DNA of 64,000 bases from contig CATLDC010000009.1 in assembly GCA_949902595.1 (NCBI GenBank), positions 1 to 64,000 of the forward strand, given 5' to 3'. Positions 1 to 63,430 of the stretch are shown here, piece by piece (within the stretch, counting starts at the first letter, position 1; each line of letters starts with the position of its first letter). A program made the position numbers and the translations under genes. The notes under the pieces are model-generated. The model was not told the DNA's origin. It ran no database searches and was given only the letters and a program-made list of their open reading frames with translations. The DNA comes from an uncultured Candidatus Melainabacteria bacterium (GTDB lineage: Bacteria; Cyanobacteriota; Vampirovibrionia; Gastranaerophilales; Gastranaerophilaceae).

Positions 1-14
1 TACGTGCGTAGCAC

Positions 15-42
15 ATGTAACACAATGAGTATTGTGTTACAT
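15..42. repeat. 28-bp palindrome upstream of pilin-like gene (element end)
   Basis: Perfect 12-bp arms, ATGTAACACAAT and ATTGTGTTACAT, flank the 4-nt loop GAGT. It lies 38 nt before the GTG start at 81. The same palindrome with the same flanks recurs at 63125-63152 before the second pilin-like gene, and variants occur at 26317-26344, 26608-26635 and 63403-63430. Bases 1-14 match the inside of the element at 63125-63430, so this is most likely the gene-proximal end of a further copy cut by the window edge. It could equally act as an operator or a 5' UTR hairpin. Confidence 0.8.
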
Positions 43-80
43 TCAATGCTCTTCAAAATAGGAATAGAAAGGAAGAGAAC

Positions 81-1592
81 GTGAAACAAACCGGATTTTC
101 ATTGATGGAAATGATGATAGTGCTGCTGATTATGTCTATCATCGCAGCCGCAACCGCACCAATAGTTAGCAAAAAGATGAGCAAAAGCGCCTCATCATCC
201 AACTCAAACCCATGGGTGTTTATCGATACCAAAGGCAACGCCGCATTTAACATGGCAGGCAAAGACGTTACCGCAGTAATCGGAGCCTCCAAAGTCCCAA
301 CAGGCGTAAACACCCGCCTCTACATCGACTGCGGCTCCTCCAACTCCCAACTCACCTTTGGCAAAGGAGATGAAGTCATGCAAGTCACAGCCGACCCATC
401 CGGAAGAGCAGGTATCTCCAGTGACTCCATCCAACCTAACTCCGTTGCAATCGGAGGTAACCAATCCCTCTCCGGCTCCAGCACCGTAACAATCGGCCAA
501 AACGCCTCCACAACAGATACCGGCGCAACAGCAATCGGCGCCTCCGCAAATGCCTCCGGACGCAACTCCGTCTCCATCGGCTCCGACTCCAAAGCAAGCG
601 GTACATGGAGTGTTGCAATCGGCGGAACAGATGTCTATACAGGTGCAGGAGGAAAAGTAACCCAGGCAACCGGTTCCCACAACGTAGCAATCGGAACCGG
701 AGCTCAAACAGAATCAAGCAGCACAGTTGCTATCGGGGATGGTGCTACTGCTACAGGTGCTGATGGCATTGCAATCGGAACCTCTCCAAAGGCAAGCGCT
801 GGGCTTTCAATTGCGGTAGGGCAGAATGCTCAGGCGACAGCTATTAACAGTGTTGCAGTAGGTTCTTGTTCTGATTCAACAAATTACACAAGGGCTACGA
901 AAAGGGGTGCTGTTGCTATTGGATATAACGCAAGAGCTATTCATGAGCAATCGTATGCGATTGGAAATGGTGCTAAAACGACAAACTCTAACCAAATTGT
1001 GCTCGGGGCTCCTGGCAGCACGGTGTATATTCCAGGGAATTTGATTGTTGATGGTAAGGCCTGGTTTATGGGACATTACAATAGTGGAACTTGTTCGGAA
1101 GTCTTTATAAACTTCTTTAAGCCTGTACAGCTATGTGAGCCAGACGGTTCTAACAACTATATTTATCATAATAATAATCCTTGGTATCCTTCAAATGATG
1201 GCTTAAGTTCAGACAGGCGTCTTAAAAATATTGGTGAAAAATATATTGATAGTCTGGACGCGCTCAAAAAACTCGACTTCTACCATTACACTTACAAAAA
1301 GGATGAGGCCAAAACACCTCATGTAGGCGTAATAGCGCAGGATTTGCAGAAAGTATTTCCAGACGCTGTAACAAAAGGCGAGGACGGTTTCTTGAGAATC
1401 CGGATGGAAGATATGTTTTATGCTGTGATAAATGCAGTAAAAGAACTTGATAACAAAGTTGCTTCAATTCTTGAAGATATCACCGGTATGAAATCCAAAA
1501 TTGAAGCACAAAGTCAGTTAATCAAAACACAACAGGCTGCAATTGAGAATCTGGAAAAGAGGCTAAGCAAGTTGGAAGCAAATCCTCAATAA
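81..1592 (+). CDS. Prepilin-like protein with YadA-type head repeats and S74 intramolecular chaperone domain
   Basis: This 503-residue protein starts at GTG 81 behind an AGGAAGAG ribosome site. Residues 1-32 are a class III prepilin leader: K2-Q3-T4-G5 then F6SLME, with E10 at +5 of the predicted G5/F6 cleavage, followed by a hydrophobic helix to about residue 29. Residues about 120-320 carry many SxAIGxxA-type repeats as in trimeric autotransporter heads, closing with a QIVLG...VYIPGNLIVDG neck. Residues about 376-460 form an S74 endosialidase-type chaperone with S-D-R-R-L-K, where Ser and the Lys at +5 would form the self-cleavage dyad. A C-terminal coiled coil follows. Inference: a trimeric surface fibre anchored and exported through a type IV pilus or type II secretion-like route. 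Residues 1-114 differ from the copy at 61500-63086 at only two positions (Q3R, S86N). Synonymous codon choice shifts abruptly near base 720. The exact function is unknown. Confidence 0.8.
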   Translation: MKQTGFSLMEMMIVLLIMSIIAAATAPIVSKKMSKSASSSNSNPWVFIDTKGNAAFNMAGKDVTAVIGASKVPTGVNTRLYIDCGSSNSQLTFGKGDEVMQVTADPSGRAGISSDSIQPNSVAIGGNQSLSGSSTVTIGQNASTTDTGATAIGASANASGRNSVSIGSDSKASGTWSVAIGGTDVYTGAGGKVTQATGSHNVAIGTGAQTESSSTVAIGDGATATGADGIAIGTSPKASAGLSIAVGQNAQATAINSVAVGSCSDSTNYTRATKRGAVAIGYNARAIHEQSYAIGNGAKTTNSNQIVLGAPGSTVYIPGNLIVDGKAWFMGHYNSGTCSEVFINFFKPVQLCEPDGSNNYIYHNNNPWYPSNDGLSSDRRLKNIGEKYIDSLDALKKLDFYHYTYKKDEAKTPHVGVIAQDLQKVFPDAVTKGEDGFLRIRMEDMFYAVINAVKELDNKVASILEDITGMKSKIEAQSQLIKTQQAAIENLEKRLSKLEANPQ

Positions 1593-26316: not shown

Positions 26317-26635
26317 ATGTAACACAATACCTATTCTGTTACATAAGTAATAATATTTACGGCACAAATCCTGAAAACTTTAGGGTTTGCGGAGAAAATG
26401 TTACAAAAGTTTACAAATAGTCCCCTCGCCCAACGGGAGAGGGTTGGGGTGAGGGGGCAAACCCTTATCAGTCGAATATTACACCCCACCCTAGTCCTCC
26501 CCATCAAGGGAGGGAACGCGCCACATGTGTCGTCTCAAAACCAGCTAAAAAGCGCTAAGCCTGTAGTCCTTATCCCAACGGGGCAGAGCCCCTCCTCATT
26601 TACCCTTATGTAACAGAATAGGTATTGAGTTACAT
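26317..26635 (+). mobile_element. Palindrome-ended ~319-bp repeat element (MITE-like)
   Basis: Both ends are 28-bp palindromes in inverted orientation (26317-26344, loop ACCT; 26608-26635, loop AGGT). The interior (about 26420-26600) contains CCCTCGCCC/GGGAGAGGGTTGGGGTGAGGG and further GC-rich inverted repeats. It aligns in inverted orientation with the element at 63125-63430, sharing long stretches such as the block around CAAAACCAGC...AAGCCTGTAGTCC. No transposase reading frame is inside, and the short frames there are by-products of the repeat. It ends 32 nt before the autotransporter start, in the same relative orientation as the other copies. The 195 nt before it (26122-26316) show only AT-rich sequence. 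Confidence 0.75.
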
Positions 26636-26667: not shown

Positions 26668-29600
26668 ATGAGTTTGAAAAAGGTTCTATGCGTATGTACT
26701 TTGTTGGGCGTGTTTGCGGTAAATCAGGCAGGGGCAGAAGAGGCTTATACTGTTACAAAGGTTGAAACGTCGGGAAATAATACTTATACAAACTATAAAC
26801 TGAAAGATGTTGAATACCAAGGCGCTGTGGTAAAAGATGTAGTGCCGGAATTTTATCGTATTGACTTAAAAACGTACTACGGTGACACAAATGGCGAGAA
26901 TGTTAAAAACTTTAGCCTTAATAATACAGAAATTCTGTTTCAGTATGATGGAGCTGGTCTGAATCGGGTGGATAATGCAGAAGACTTGGCGGGCAACAAT
27001 GTAGAAGGTAATTTTATTGACCTTCATTATGATAAAACACCTATCGTAGCCGGGGTAGCGATTTCTAATAGCGGAAAACTAGGTGATGTTATTGCAAACT
27101 TTGTGGGTAATAGCCTTGATGTGAATAGCGTGGATGTTTTTGGCGGAGTGCTGTACAACACTGGAAGCATCAATAATATTAATGGAAACTTCATTGGAAA
27201 CGGCTCCTACTCTCAACTAGGCTATATTAAAGGCGGTACAATTAATAACGCTGGTACAATCGGCAATATTGTTGCAAATTTTATCGGAAATTATTCTAAA
27301 ACAGACAATGCTATGGCTTACGGAAGCTCTATACGTAATGTCAATTCTAATGCCTATATTGAAAATATTGAAGGAAACTTTATTGGAAATTCCACCGAAG
27401 GTAAAGCCGGTGCCTTTGGCGGCGCAATACACAATGAGGGTGGCGCAAGAATCGGCAATATCAATGCAAACTTTATAGCAAATAAAGCAATCTCTGATGA
27501 ATCACGTGCGGGAGCTATTGCGAGTTACAGCGGTGAGATTGGCAGTATAAAAGGAGATTTTATCGCTAATAGTTCAGTTTCTCTTTCCAAAAACGGTTTG
27601 GGCGGTGCAATACACGCATCGGGTACAAAAATTGGTGATATCGAAGGTAACTTCATTAATAACTACACATCTGCTGAGAAATGTGCCTACGGCGGAGCAA
27701 TTAACGTTCTTGCTAACGAAATCGGAAACATAACTGCCAATTTTGTTAACAATTACGCAGAAGGCAAAACCGATTCCGCAATTGGCGGAGCGCTGCATAT
27801 TGCATGCAATACAAAAAATATCAACGGACTTTTTTATAACAATAAAGCTCAGGCATTCACACTTGCAGCAGGCGGAGCGATTCATAATGAAGGTTCTTGT
27901 GGCGATATAAATGCAACTTTTATTGAGAATAAGGCAAATTCTCAGGCTTCCAAAAATCAAGCTTACGGCGGTGCTATTTATAACACTGGGTCGATTGGTA
28001 AAATTACGGGTGATTTTGTGCGAAATTCTATTTTTGCAAGCACTTATAATGCCGGTATGGCAAAGGGCGGCGCGATTTTTAATAATACAGGAAGTACAAT
28101 AGGTGATATTAACGGGAACTTTGTCAATAATACTTCTACTGCTTATTTTGGCAGAAGTGCTGCGATAGAAAACTTTGGGCAGATTGGTGATATCACTGGA
28201 GCTTTTATCGGTAATACTGTTAATTCTGTTTATGATGCTTATGGGGCAGCAATTCAGGGCAGTGGTGAGTTTGGGAATATAACGGGTAATTTTATTGATA
28301 ACTCTGTTAAGTCAGATATCTATTCAGCAGGCGGTGCAATCCAAATTAGCGGCAAAATTAAAGAACTTAGCGGAAATTTTATTAACAATTCGGCTGTCGC
28401 AACCGCTGATAATGCACAGTTTGCAGGCGCAGGTGCAATAAGAAACAACGGAACGATTGAAGCAATTGTGAACTCAAGCTTTATAAATAATTACGCTAAA
28501 ACCGCGAATAGCACTGTAAAAGGAGGTGCTATTTATACCAGCAAAGACCTGGATTTAATTGCGAGAGAGAAGCACACATCATATATAAGCGGTAATTATG
28601 TCGAAAACAAAGACGGGAAAAGAGCAGAAGCCATATTTGTAGACAAATCCGCAAACCTCGGTATTCAGGCTCAAACCGGAGGAAGCTTTGTTATTGATGA
28701 CATAATTAACGGTGACAAGGGCTACTCGGTTGCGTTTAGCGGAGATGAGTCAGGCAAAATTTTTCTTAACAATAAAATAATCAACGCTGATATCTCGCTT
28801 GAGAACACAAACCTGTTTCTCTCAAACGACAGCCTGTTGAATGAAAGCAGCTCTATTGCTCTCAATTCCGGCATGCTGTCAATGGTTAATAATCAGATTG
28901 GAGCAATTAGCATTCCTGAATTTAGCCTTATGGGAGTTACTTCTATCGCGATAGACGCAGACCTTGCACGAAACTCCATTGATAGAATCGTATCATCAAA
29001 ATACAATGTTGCAGACGATTCGATGCTTAATGTTAGTCGGATAAACCTGATTTCTGATTCAAAGAATCCAACAACGCAGATTATGTTTGCAGACCGTGAG
29101 CTTGCAGGAAATGTTGCTTATACAGGTGAGAATCCAATTGCTTATTCTCCAATCTACAAGTATGATGTGAGTTATACAACAAATCCTGAAGACGGGCTTG
29201 GCTATTTTAATTTTATCAGAGGCGGCTCTTCTGCAAATCCTTCTGAAAACTTCAACCCCTCAGTGCTGGCTACTCCGGTAACATCACTAGCGAGCGGTTA
29301 TACAACCCAGATGCAAACTTTTAATTATGCATTCCAGCACTCTGATTACTTTATGACAATACCTTATCTCGAACGTCTTGCAATCAAAGAGTCCGGACGA
29401 TACGCGCTTTCTCCGACTTCTGACGCTACTGATGTAGGAACCTTTTCTCCGCTTATATCCAGAATCGAATCCTCAGGAGTCTGGGTCAAGCCTTACGTAA
29501 GTTTTGAAAACATTCCCTTAAAGAACGGCCCGAAAGTCTCAAATATAAGCTATGGTTCGCTCATAGGATATGATACGCCGCTTAGCAGTGCAAAATTCGG

Positions 29601-30249
29601 GTTCGACAAAGTCCTTACCGGATATGTCGGGTATAATGGTGCGAGCCAGAGTTACACCGGTGTAAGCACTGCCCAGAACGGCGGGCTAATCGGCGGAACT
29701 GCAACTTTATACAAGGGTAATTTCTTCAGTGCGACCACTCTTAGCGCAGGTGCGAGCACCGGTAATTCTCAAACAATGTACGGCTCTGATAATTACGCAA
29801 TGCTTATAGCCGGAATCGGGAACAAAACCGGATACAACTTTGAGTTCAGAGAGGGCAGATACATAATCCAGCCGAGTTTTCTAATCAATTATACGTTTGT
29901 AAACACTTTCGATTACACAAATGCCGCTGGGGTAAGAATTAAGAGTTCTCCTCTGAACGCAATCCAATTATCTCCGGGTGTTAAGTTTATTGCAAATACA
30001 AAAAACGGTTGGCAGCCTTATTTGGGGGTTAACATGGTCTGGAATATTTTAGACACAGCAAAGGTTACCGCAAACGAGGTGCGGCTTCCGGAGATGAGCA
30101 TAAAGCCTTATGTGCAATATGGCCTTGGCTTGCAGAAGCGCATAAAGGAACGGTTTATGGCATACGGTCAGGCCATGGTTATGAATGGCGGGCGAAACGG
30201 GATATCTTTGTCTTTCGGGTTAAGATACGCAATCGGGAAAGGCGATTAG
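26668..30249 (+). CDS. Type V autotransporter with repetitive beta-helix passenger
   Basis: This 1193-residue protein has a signal peptide (residues 1-23, cleavage after QAGA), a passenger of about 16 imperfect repeats of 32-37 residues (pattern GGAI-N-G-IG-I-GNFI-N) at residues 85-660, a junction/linker with few repeats at 660-890, and a C-terminal beta-barrel at about 900-1193 (SGVWVKPYVSFE, then alternating beta strands, ending YAIGKGD). The passenger looks like a parallel beta-helix surface adhesin. The C-terminus lacks the aromatic final residue usual for BAM recognition. The ATG follows GAGG. It is preceded by a palindrome-ended element and followed by a hairpin without T-tract. Confidence 0.85.
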   Translation: MSLKKVLCVCTLLGVFAVNQAGAEEAYTVTKVETSGNNTYTNYKLKDVEYQGAVVKDVVPEFYRIDLKTYYGDTNGENVKNFSLNNTEILFQYDGAGLNRVDNAEDLAGNNVEGNFIDLHYDKTPIVAGVAISNSGKLGDVIANFVGNSLDVNSVDVFGGVLYNTGSINNINGNFIGNGSYSQLGYIKGGTINNAGTIGNIVANFIGNYSKTDNAMAYGSSIRNVNSNAYIENIEGNFIGNSTEGKAGAFGGAIHNEGGARIGNINANFIANKAISDESRAGAIASYSGEIGSIKGDFIANSSVSLSKNGLGGAIHASGTKIGDIEGNFINNYTSAEKCAYGGAINVLANEIGNITANFVNNYAEGKTDSAIGGALHIACNTKNINGLFYNNKAQAFTLAAGGAIHNEGSCGDINATFIENKANSQASKNQAYGGAIYNTGSIGKITGDFVRNSIFASTYNAGMAKGGAIFNNTGSTIGDINGNFVNNTSTAYFGRSAAIENFGQIGDITGAFIGNTVNSVYDAYGAAIQGSGEFGNITGNFIDNSVKSDIYSAGGAIQISGKIKELSGNFINNSAVATADNAQFAGAGAIRNNGTIEAIVNSSFINNYAKTANSTVKGGAIYTSKDLDLIAREKHTSYISGNYVENKDGKRAEAIFVDKSANLGIQAQTGGSFVIDDIINGDKGYSVAFSGDESGKIFLNNKIINADISLENTNLFLSNDSLLNESSSIALNSGMLSMVNNQIGAISIPEFSLMGVTSIAIDADLARNSIDRIVSSKYNVADDSMLNVSRINLISDSKNPTTQIMFADRELAGNVAYTGENPIAYSPIYKYDVSYTTNPEDGLGYFNFIRGGSSANPSENFNPSVLATPVTSLASGYTTQMQTFNYAFQHSDYFMTIPYLERLAIKESGRYALSPTSDATDVGTFSPLISRIESSGVWVKPYVSFENIPLKNGPKVSNISYGSLIGYDTPLSSAKFGFDKVLTGYVGYNGASQSYTGVSTAQNGGLIGGTATLYKGNFFSATTLSAGASTGNSQTMYGSDNYAMLIAGIGNKTGYNFEFREGRYIIQPSFLINYTFVNTFDYTNAAGVRIKSSPLNAIQLSPGVKFIANTKNGWQPYLGVNMVWNILDTAKVTANEVRLPEMSIKPYVQYGLGLQKRIKERFMAYGQAMVMNGGRNGISLSFGLRYAIGKGD

Positions 30250-61499: not shown

Positions 61500-63086
61500 T
61501 TACTTTTCAGCTTTTACTATTTTCGTAAGTTCGTCAATTTGTTTTTGCATGCTATCAATCGTTTTTTGCTGCTCGTCAATTGTGCTCTTCATCCTTGTAT
61601 ACCTTAAATCAAGCTCCTTGACTGCGTTGATGAGGGCGTAAAACATATCTTCCATTCGGATTCTCAAGAATCCGTCCTCGCCTTTGGTTACGGCATTAGG
61701 AAAAACTTTTTGCAAATCCTGTGCCATTACGCCAACATGCGGAGTTTTGGATTCGTCTTTTTTGAAAGTATAGTGGTAGAACTCTAATTTTTTAAGAGCG
61801 TCTAGACCATCAGTGTATTTAGCCCCGACATTTTTAAGACGTCGGTCGCAAGCACCTGGGATTCCGGTTGACCAGCGTCTTAATCCCCCCAAGCTGTCCC
61901 AGCCGCCTATACCGCCGCGCATTCCGCGATTACCAAGGTGGGCCCAGATAGCAACATCATCACCGCTTAAGTACTCACCAATATATGCATGTCTTCTAAA
62001 ACGTACATCGCCGTCAACAACGAGATTCCCCGGAATGTATACAGTATGACTTGATGTTCCCAAAACAATCTGATAGTTTGTTGACGTTTTAGCGTCGCTT
62101 CCGATTGCTACGGAGTATTCACCTTTGGCTTCTGCTCTACAGCCCAAAGCTGTTGCAAATCTTTTTGTTGCTGCTGCTCCACCACCAATAGCGGTTGAAG
62201 CGTGAGCGCTTGCTGTTGTTTTCATGTTAGCGCCAGATGTTCCGGTTTCGACAAAAGAGCCTATAGCAAGAGAGGCTGTACCTTTTGCAACTGGGTATTC
62301 TCCAATAGCAACTGGGGCGCCATAACCAGCTGTATTTTTTTGTGCCAGAGCGCCTAAGCCAATAGCTACTGAGCCGCTTGCACTATTAGCGCTATCTGTT
62401 TGGGCACCGTTGCCAATAGCTATACTGTTATTGCTTACAGCTTTTACATTGTTGCTTCCGATTGCAATACTGTTATTCCCGAGGGCTCCGGAGTCGTTAC
62501 CAAAATATCCAACTGCAACGCTTGATGTTCCTGTTGCTTTTGTATAAGAACCCAGAGCAACTGAGGTTGAGCCTGCCTCTGCTCCGTAACCTCCGGCCAA
62601 GGATGCCGAGCCGGCTTTCGACCCTGCACCCACAGCTGTTGAATAATCTGCTGTTGTCTGTGCGCTATTGCCGATTGTTACTGTATTTGTACCTGACAGT
62701 GATTGATTACTGCCAAAGGCGATTGAGTTGGATGGGATTGTTGCGCTTGAGATACCGGCTCTTCCTGATGGGTCGGCTGTTACTTGCATGACTTCATCGC
62801 CTTTGCCGAAGGTGAGTTGGGAGTTGGAGTTTCCGCAGTCGATGTAGAGGCGGGTGTTTACGCCGGTTGGGACTTTGGATGCTCCGATTACTGCTGTGAC
62901 ATCTTTTCCAGCCATGTTAAATGCTGCGTTGCCTTTGGTATCGATAAACACCCAGGGGTTTGAGTTTGATGATGAGGCGCTTTTGCTCATCTTTTTGCTC
63001 ACAATGGGTGCGGTTGCGGCTGCGATGATTGACATAATCAGCAGCACTATCATCATTTCCATCAATGAAAATCCGGTTCTTTTCAC
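61500..63086 (-). CDS. Prepilin-like/YadA-head/S74-chaperone chimera, second copy
   Basis: This 528-residue protein has the same architecture as the gene at 81. Residues 1-32 are the prepilin leader (G5/F6 with E10), residues 115-345 carry head repeats (SVAIG, SIAIGSNN, SVALGSYTKAT), the neck again ends VYIPGNLVVDG, and residues about 400-480 are the S74 domain. Here the cleavage-site residue is cysteine (ACDRRLK) instead of serine. The C-terminal coiled coil differs entirely in sequence from copy 1. Start GTG 63086 has AGGAAGAG upstream, as at 81. The gene and its leader are in inverted orientation to copy 1 across the window. Confidence 0.8.
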   Translation of the reverse strand: MKRTGFSLMEMMIVLLIMSIIAAATAPIVSKKMSKSASSSNSNPWVFIDTKGNAAFNMAGKDVTAVIGASKVPTGVNTRLYIDCGNSNSQLTFGKGDEVMQVTADPSGRAGISSATIPSNSIAFGSNQSLSGTNTVTIGNSAQTTADYSTAVGAGSKAGSASLAGGYGAEAGSTSVALGSYTKATGTSSVAVGYFGNDSGALGNNSIAIGSNNVKAVSNNSIAIGNGAQTDSANSASGSVAIGLGALAQKNTAGYGAPVAIGEYPVAKGTASLAIGSFVETGTSGANMKTTASAHASTAIGGGAAATKRFATALGCRAEAKGEYSVAIGSDAKTSTNYQIVLGTSSHTVYIPGNLVVDGDVRFRRHAYIGEYLSGDDVAIWAHLGNRGMRGGIGGWDSLGGLRRWSTGIPGACDRRLKNVGAKYTDGLDALKKLEFYHYTFKKDESKTPHVGVMAQDLQKVFPNAVTKGEDGFLRIRMEDMFYALINAVKELDLRYTRMKSTIDEQQKTIDSMQKQIDELTKIVKAEK

Positions 63087-63124
63087 GTTCTCTTCCTTTC
63101 TATTCTTGTTTTGAAGAGCATTGA

Positions 63125-63430
63125 ATGTAACACAATACTCATTGTGTTACATGTGCTACGCACGTAGACCGTCTTGCCCAGTCGGGATAAGGACTACAGG
63201 CTTGGCGCTTTTTGGCTGGTTTTGGGACTACAAATTGGGCGCGTTCCCTCCCTGGATGGGGAGGGTTAGGGTGGGGTACAGCCTTCTGCGCAAGGGCTTT
63301 AGCGGTTTGGGGTTGACCCCTCACCCCTGCCCTCTCCCTAAGGAGAGGGGGGTAGTGCTAAAGTCGCTCAGGGAGTTGCTTTTTAACCAGCATGATAGTA
63401 TAATGTAACACAATGAGTATTGTGTTACAT
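63125..63430 (-). mobile_element. Palindrome-ended ~306-bp repeat element (MITE-like)
   Basis: Palindromes at 63125-63152 (loop ACTC) and 63403-63430 (loop GAGT) are exact inverted copies with perfect 12-bp arms. The interior aligns with the element at 26317-26635 after reverse complementing. Read towards the gene at 63086, it has the same orientation as the other copies. Short frames inside are by-products. The whole 398-nt gap 63087-63484 is otherwise this element plus the terminator. Confidence 0.75.

What the first reader, a model, noticed from the sequence alone, without database searches (positions are those of the whole stretch)
81..1592. Type IV prepilin leader fused to YadA head and S74 self-cleaving chaperone
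Seen: a class III prepilin start (G5/F6, E10) precedes trimeric-autotransporter head repeats and an S74 endosialidase-type chaperone with an S-D-R-R-L-K dyad. Known: YadA heads normally end in a membrane-anchor barrel, and S74 domains normally trimerise phage tail fibres. Inference: a trimeric fibre assembled by S74, released from the chaperone, and exported or anchored by a pilus or type II secretion-like machine. I am not aware of this combination being described as a system.
Basis: partly seen in the sequence, partly recalled or inferred. Interest (0 to 1): 0.85.

Follow-up and report, generated by a model that had tools for sequence, protein, structure and literature searches.

The report
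Switchable pilus fibres with phage-style tips
A gut bacterium related to cyanobacteria carries about eleven copies of a pilus protein fused to a phage-like sticky fibre, with differing tips and, in nearly all copies, a DNA promoter that looks able to flip on or off, so a cell could change what it sticks to.

Summary
Window 81-1592 encodes a 503-aa protein with a class III prepilin leader, a YadA-type head and a C-terminal S74 chaperone/autoprotease with the S-D-R-R-L-K dyad; all three score above Pfam cut-offs. It is one of at least eleven paralogues in this Candidatus Gastranaerophilales genome, and 56 of 56 untruncated relatives checked keep the leader. The genome encodes a type IVa pilus (secretin, PilB, PilC, two PilT, prepilin peptidase), and no YadA anchor was found in the protein. 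Pilin and S74 parts are conserved between paralogues; the ~50 residues before the S74 cleavage site are unrelated within the genome, yet some closely match other species: a swappable tip. New here: ten paralogues have a promoter segment between paired inverted 26-bp sites. Nine carry it pointing away from the gene (OFF), one flipped toward it (ON); the window copy is cut by the contig end but looks OFF. Best reading: phase-variable, trimeric, phage-fibre-like adhesins displayed by type IV pili. The pilin-S74 pairing was already catalogued (Raynaud 2021); I did not find the tip repertoire and promoter switch described. Display, trimerisation, cleavage and live inversion are inferred, not shown.

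The parts
1..15 (+). End of the invertible segment, cut by the contig start; reads TACGTGCGTAGCACA, the promoter-less end, so the window gene looks OFF as assembled
   Evidence: Identical to the promoter-distal end of the C14 segment reversed
16..41 (+). Gene-proximal 26-bp inversion site TGTAACACAAT-GAGT-ATTGTGTTACA
   Evidence: chance expectation 0 in shuffles
71..80 (+). Putative ribosome-binding region GGAAGAGAAC before the GTG start
   Evidence: Sequence
81..1592 (+). Prepilin / YadA-head / tip / S74 fibre protein, 503 aa
81..155 (+). Class III leader (cleavage expected after G5) and hydrophobic alpha1 helix
   Evidence: PF07963 residues 1-25; helix 8-25 in model
216..419 (+). Beta-strand domain (residues 46-113) between helix and head; no pilin globular domain was recognised by Pfam
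   Evidence: AlphaFold, low to moderate confidence; Pfam
444..1010 (+). YadA-type left-handed beta-roll head (residues 122-310)
   Evidence: PF05658, pLDDT mostly over 90, Foldseek to 7o23/3s6l
1047..1208 (+). Hypervariable tip module (residues 323-376)
   Evidence: Paralogue DNA identity falls to 0.32 here against 0.75-0.82 in S74; no own paralogue match, match in another species
1209..1373 (+). S74 intramolecular chaperone/autoprotease; S377 and K382 dyad, cleavage expected just before S377
   Evidence: PF13884
1404..1580 (+). C-terminal helix/coiled coil (residues 442-500)
   Evidence: AlphaFold
61506..63092 (-). Second paralogue in the window (528 aa), same architecture; S74 nucleophile is Cys (ACDRRLKN)
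63126..63151 (-). Gene-proximal inversion site of the second paralogue
63152..63403 (.). Invertible promoter segment of the second paralogue; TATAAT lies at the gene-distal end, so OFF
63404..63429 (+). Gene-distal inversion site of the second paralogue

Best explanation
The gene encodes one member of a phase-variable family of modular type IV pilins that carry phage-tail-fibre-like adhesins. The prepilin is inserted in the inner membrane by its N-terminal helix and trimerises in the periplasm with help of the C-terminal S74 domain. S74 then cleaves itself off in front of S377 and exposes a short tip at the end of a YadA-type beta-roll. Prepilin peptidase removes the leader, and the type IVa pilus machine pushes the trimer out through the secretin, probably at the filament tip, where it binds a surface ligand. 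The genome holds at least eleven such genes; where the sequence is complete they share the body and differ in the tip. A small FimB/FimE-like tyrosine recombinase is proposed to flip a promoter segment between paired 26-bp sites in front of these genes, so only one or a few are expressed at a time. Shown from sequence: architecture, gene family, tip variability, pilus genes, paired sites with a promoter, and both orientations of the segment. Inferred: trimerisation, self-cleavage, pilus display, adhesion, live switching, and which recombinase acts.
For: Domains. Nine S74 matches in the genome and eleven 5' ends in all. Relatives in 26 of 57 genomes; 292 relatives in genome contigs, the best 80 mostly titled Gastranaerophilales/Melainabacteria, and 56 of 56 untruncated ones with a prepilin leader. 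Pilus genes: secretin, PilB, PilC, prepilin peptidase, two PilT above curated cut-off. The ectodomain matches phage tail-fibre family phrog_1980 over head plus S74, E=5.5e-21. Tips: best match to an own paralogue scores 25-32, while 4 of 9 tips score 84-159 against other species; shuffled-tip maximum 49. Switch: 61 site pairs collected, 52 with identical core in inverted register, about 15 different cores. In C14 the 155-bp segment is 81-92% identical inverted and 47-51% direct to its paralogues; in the copies read through to the start codon except C2, the gene-side leader is 94-98% identical, and the C14 promoter is TTGCAT-N17-TATAAT facing the gene. In relative G007, L116 and L117 hold a 367-bp segment 96.7% identical in opposite orientation to the gene. 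Small tyrosine recombinases match NF007371 tyrosine-type DNA invertase, E=1.4e-11 and 1.7e-14, below cut-off.
Against: No experiment or read data were available, so orientations are those of one assembly per species. Recombinase presence tracks the sites only weakly within the genus: Fisher p 0.05-0.15, against 2e-4 to 6e-4 over all 57 genomes, where ancestry confounds it. Many S74 pilins in other clades have no paired sites, so the switch is not universal. Similar sites also lie next to non-pilin genes. One S74 copy has Cys for Ser and one is frameshifted. Display at the pilus tip is by analogy with CofB and PilV.
Confidence: 0.72

Rival explanations
1. The fibre is a pseudopilin-like cargo: the pilus or a type II-like machine pushes it out and it is released or stays short, acting as a secreted or cell-wall-spanning fibre rather than a pilus-tip adhesin.
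For: The secretin and PilC-like protein score as well to GspD/GspF models as to pilus models; the fibre lacks a recognised pilin globular domain.
Against: Two PilT-family ATPases above curated cut-off mark a type IVa pilus; one secretin only.
Confidence: 0.17
2. The paired 26-bp palindromes are a MITE/REP-like repeat or regulator operators that travelled with the genes, and no inversion takes place.
For: 62 copies in the genome, some beside non-pilin genes; spacing and inner sequence are shared between copies.
Against: Precise flip between the sites with a near-unchanged gene-side flank in C14 against most paralogues; core identity within pairs but not between pairs; opposite orientations inside G007 and G011; promoter at one end only.
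Confidence: 0.08
3. A classical trimeric autotransporter or a prophage tail fibre misread as a pilin.
For: YadA head and S74 are typical of those proteins; phage proteins combine them.
Against: No YadA_anchor; prepilin leader in 56 of 56 untruncated relatives; neighbours are housekeeping genes such as leuS; viral-contig relatives found by tblastn match residues 80 onward only, none covering the pilin part.
Confidence: 0.02

Closest known systems
Modular type IV pilins (Streptococcus sanguinis PilB; catalogue of Raynaud et al. 2021, PMC8179133)
   Same: Prepilin N-terminus with a grafted functional module; the catalogue names prepilin + S74 (IPR012902-IPR030392) as a frequent architecture
   Different: There S74 was read as a peptidase activity; here it is the maturation chaperone of a fibre, with a YadA head, variable tips, many paralogues and switchable promoters
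PilV of IncI plasmids with its shufflon (R64, TP114; PMC9045228)
   Same: Minor type IV pilin with constant N-terminus and variable C-terminal adhesin, chosen by a tyrosine recombinase
   Different: PilV swaps 3' ends of one gene; here separate genes have invertible promoters, and the adhesin is an S74 fibre
Bdellovibrio mosaic adhesive trimeric (MAT) fibres (PMC10769870)
   Same: Chromosomal family of S74-processed trimeric adhesive fibres with diverse tips
   Different: MATs have a signal peptide and a ~130-aa beta-domain; the word pilin does not occur in that paper, and I saw no promoter switch in the passages read
E. coli fimS with FimB/FimE, and gut invertons (PMC11892184)
   Same: Invertible promoter between short inverted repeats controlling a pilus; small tyrosine recombinases
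   Different: fimS serves one chaperone-usher pilus operon; here many parallel switches serve one modular-pilin family (fimS comparison from general knowledge)
CofB of enterotoxigenic E. coli type IVb pili
   Same: Homotrimeric minor pilin with long beta extension predicted at the pilus tip (cited in PMC8179133)
   Different: No S74, no YadA head, single gene (general knowledge)

Membership tests
Modular type IV pilin | Class III prepilin leader with G-1 and E5 and hydrophobic helix | tested here: met
   PF07963 and TIGR02532 above cut-off; F6 and E10 invariant
Modular type IV pilin | Extra module not specific to pilus biology | tested here: met
   YadA head and S74
Modular type IV pilin | Pilus assembly machine in the same genome | tested here: met
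   Secretin, PilB, PilC, two PilT, prepilin peptidase
Modular type IV pilin | Incorporated into filaments | not testable with these tools
   Needs pilus preparation
S74 intramolecular chaperone | S74 domain with S-D-x-x-x-K dyad | tested here: met
   PF13884 59.6 bits; dyad conserved; Cys in the window's second paralogue
S74 intramolecular chaperone | Trimerisation and self-cleavage | not testable with these tools
   No multimer modelling or biochemistry
Trimeric autotransporter (type Vc) | YadA-type head | tested here: met
   PF05658; Foldseek 7o23
Trimeric autotransporter (type Vc) | C-terminal membrane-anchor barrel | tested here: not met
   No YadA_anchor; S74 and coil end the protein
Inverton (invertible promoter) | Inverted-repeat sites flanking a promoter | tested here: met
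Inverton (invertible promoter) | Both orientations exist | tested here: met
   Between paralogues and within relatives' genomes, not at one locus
Inverton (invertible promoter) | Dedicated recombinase | tested here: inconclusive
   Candidates found, assignment not proven
Bdellovibrio MAT family | Signal peptide plus ~130-aa conserved beta-domain | not tested
   No MAT sequence compared; the N-terminus here is a prepilin leader

The most novel reading that the evidence does not exclude
A new adhesion system in which a commensal gut lineage keeps a repertoire of about eleven interchangeable, self-processing phage-type tail-fibre tips on type IV pili and chooses among them by parallel promoter inversion, with tips exchanged between species.
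Probability: 0.55. Interest if true: 0.85.

Novelty: new variant of a known kind. Interest (0 to 1): 0.76.

Why it matters
It would explain what the S74 'peptidase' pilins listed in surveys do, join phage tail-fibre maturation to type IV pili, and show a promoter-switch route to tip variation where only 3'-end shuffling (PilV) was known to me. It also gives testable adhesin candidates for Gastranaerophilales, whose interactions with host or microbes are, to my knowledge, little characterised.

Tried and rejected
Trimeric autotransporter: rejected, no anchor barrel. Prophage fibre: rejected, no phage neighbours seen and a conserved prepilin leader. Recombinase-to-site correlation: weak within the genus. 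De novo search for inverted repeats upstream of S74 pilins in other clades: only those with TGTAAC-type pairs stood clearly above shuffles. Monomer AlphaFold did not resolve S74. No paper in the library combined prepilin, YadA, endosialidase and chaperone, or Gastranaerophilales with phase variation.

Full report
Where it lies. The window is bases 1-64000 of contig C9 of a 2.1-Mb, 41-contig, 99.8%-complete genome. Its relatives in genome contigs mostly carry titles such as Candidatus Gastranaerophilales bacterium or uncultured Melainabacteria, so the organism is placed there by relatives, not by name. The gene starts 80 bases from the contig end and is followed by leuS (leuS named from its translation).

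What the protein is. The 503-aa product has a class III prepilin leader, five YadA-head stretches and an S74 domain, each above its Pfam cut-off, and no YadA anchor. TIGR02532 also exceeds its cut-off. AlphaFold gives a helix at 8-25, a beta domain at 46-113, a confident beta-roll over about 122-310, a short beta tip, a poorly modelled S74 and a long C-terminal helix. Foldseek matches the head to BpaC, BoaA, EibD and YadA and to phage YadA-like proteins. PHROG tail-fibre family phrog_1980 matches head plus S74 in one stretch, 127-494, E=5.5e-21: outside the prepilin part this is a phage-type fibre.

A family. S74 occurs nine times in the genome; further 5' ends at contig ends C14, C18, C20 and C24 bring the 5' ends to eleven, while two of the nine 3' parts lack their 5' ends. 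Of 80 loci fetched from genome contigs, 56 untruncated ones have the prepilin leader and 21 are cut by contig ends; of the other three, two gave no leader in the ORF found and one was a mis-start on a 153-aa piece. In 57 relatives S74 is found in 26. Viral contigs gave matches to residues 80 onward only. In two other families of the order three prepilin-S74 genes stand in a row, in two of the three loci read beside a fourth prepilin.

Constant body, variable tip. Aligned paralogues are 88-95% identical in mean over most of the pilin part, mosaic in the head with local pairs up to 100%, about 32% (random) in the stretch before S74, and 75-82% in S74. Tracts of 127-243 bp at 93-98% identity between C9a, C2 and C12 fit recombination between paralogues. 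The last 48 residues before S74 score 25-32 against own paralogues, no more than shuffled tips, but four of nine score 84-159 against other species, shuffled maximum 49. The C10 tip is 62% identical to one in L180 although the pilin part is 45%. At the window locus itself the nearest species keeps the gene at 95% over 5 kb including the tip, so tip change is not fast at every locus.

Export machine. Secretin, PilB and PilC lie together on C7, with two PilT-family ATPases above curated cut-off and one prepilin peptidase. There are 27 prepilin-type starts in the genome.

The promoter switch. The paralogues with a 5' end have TGTAACACAAT-NNNN-ATTGTGTTACA before the start (C2 with a longer leader). 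The sites stand in inverted pairs, 181 bp apart in most copies and 267-278 bp in C3 and C9b. Of 61 distinct pairs from all loci, 52 have the same core in inverted register, with about fifteen different cores, five direct and four neither. At least 16 of the 27 prepilin starts have such a site close upstream (comparison). The segment carries a TTGCAT-N17-TATAAT-type promoter at one end. In C1b, C2, C3, C4, C9b, C10, C18, C20 and C24 that end is distal to the gene, so it points away. The window copy has only the promoter-less end, read as OFF. In C14 the segment is flipped: 81-92% identity to the 155-bp paralogous segments inverted, 47-51% direct. C1b, C4 and C10 have a gene-side leader 94-98% identical to that of C14; C18, C20 and C24 agree closely over the bases available before their contig ends; C2 is the exception at 38%, having a longer, different leader. 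A relative, G007, has two S74 pilins with a 367-bp segment 96.7% identical in opposite orientation to the gene; G011 shows the same between an S74 pilin and another prepilin, 93.9% over 343 bp. This is what site-specific inversion leaves; a MITE or operator reading does not readily account for the near-unchanged outer flanks. Orientation at one locus in two cells was not seen.

Recombinase. Four small (183-229 aa) tyrosine recombinases are encoded at C3:112371, C19:24837, C2:32538 and C2:136439, the last about 1.7 kb from a site pair. The two tested hit NF007371 tyrosine-type DNA invertase below cut-off. Presence of a strong relative tracks presence of sites over 57 genomes (p 2e-4 to 6e-4) but only p 0.05-0.15 within the genus.

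What is known. Raynaud et al. list IPR012902-IPR030392 among the fifteen commonest modular pilins and suggest peptidase activity (PMC8179133). Bdellovibrio MAT proteins show S74 self-cleavage in a bacterial fibre (PMC10769870). PilV shufflons choose C-terminal adhesins of a type IV pilin by a tyrosine recombinase (PMC9045228). My library searches found no paper on the present combination; absence from this library is weak evidence.

Verdict. Architecture and family are near certain. Promoter inversion is strongly supported. Pilus display of a cleaved trimer is the likeliest function but untested.

Noticed in passing
window 26318-26634 and 26668-30246 (+): Another inverted site pair (core ACCT, 1 and 2 mismatches, 291 bp apart) directly upstream of a 1193-aa secreted-looking protein with no Pfam match.
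   Followed up: partly
window 61506-63092 (-): S74 nucleophile replaced by Cys (ACDRRLKN), which might keep or lose self-cleavage.
   Followed up: no
L047 (G000:C4), S74 paralogue: Reading frame broken by a frameshift about 200 codons in; pseudogene, error or phase state unknown.
   Followed up: no
L054, L056, L058: Three consecutive prepilin-S74 genes, with a fourth prepilin lacking S74 in L054 and L056; a heterotrimeric fibre is possible.
   Followed up: partly
G000 contigs C6, C9, C12, C14, C18, C20, C22, C24: Contigs end at or near these 26-bp sites or S74 genes, as expected if the repeats break assembly.
   Followed up: no
L098-L100, L102-L104, L106, L108, L115: Site pairs with GGGT, CCCT, ATGT or GCAT cores beside genes other than prepilins; several of the neighbours scanned had no clear Pfam match.
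   Followed up: partly
G000:C27:340-2775: Three tyrosine recombinases in a row on a 3.7-kb contig.
   Followed up: no
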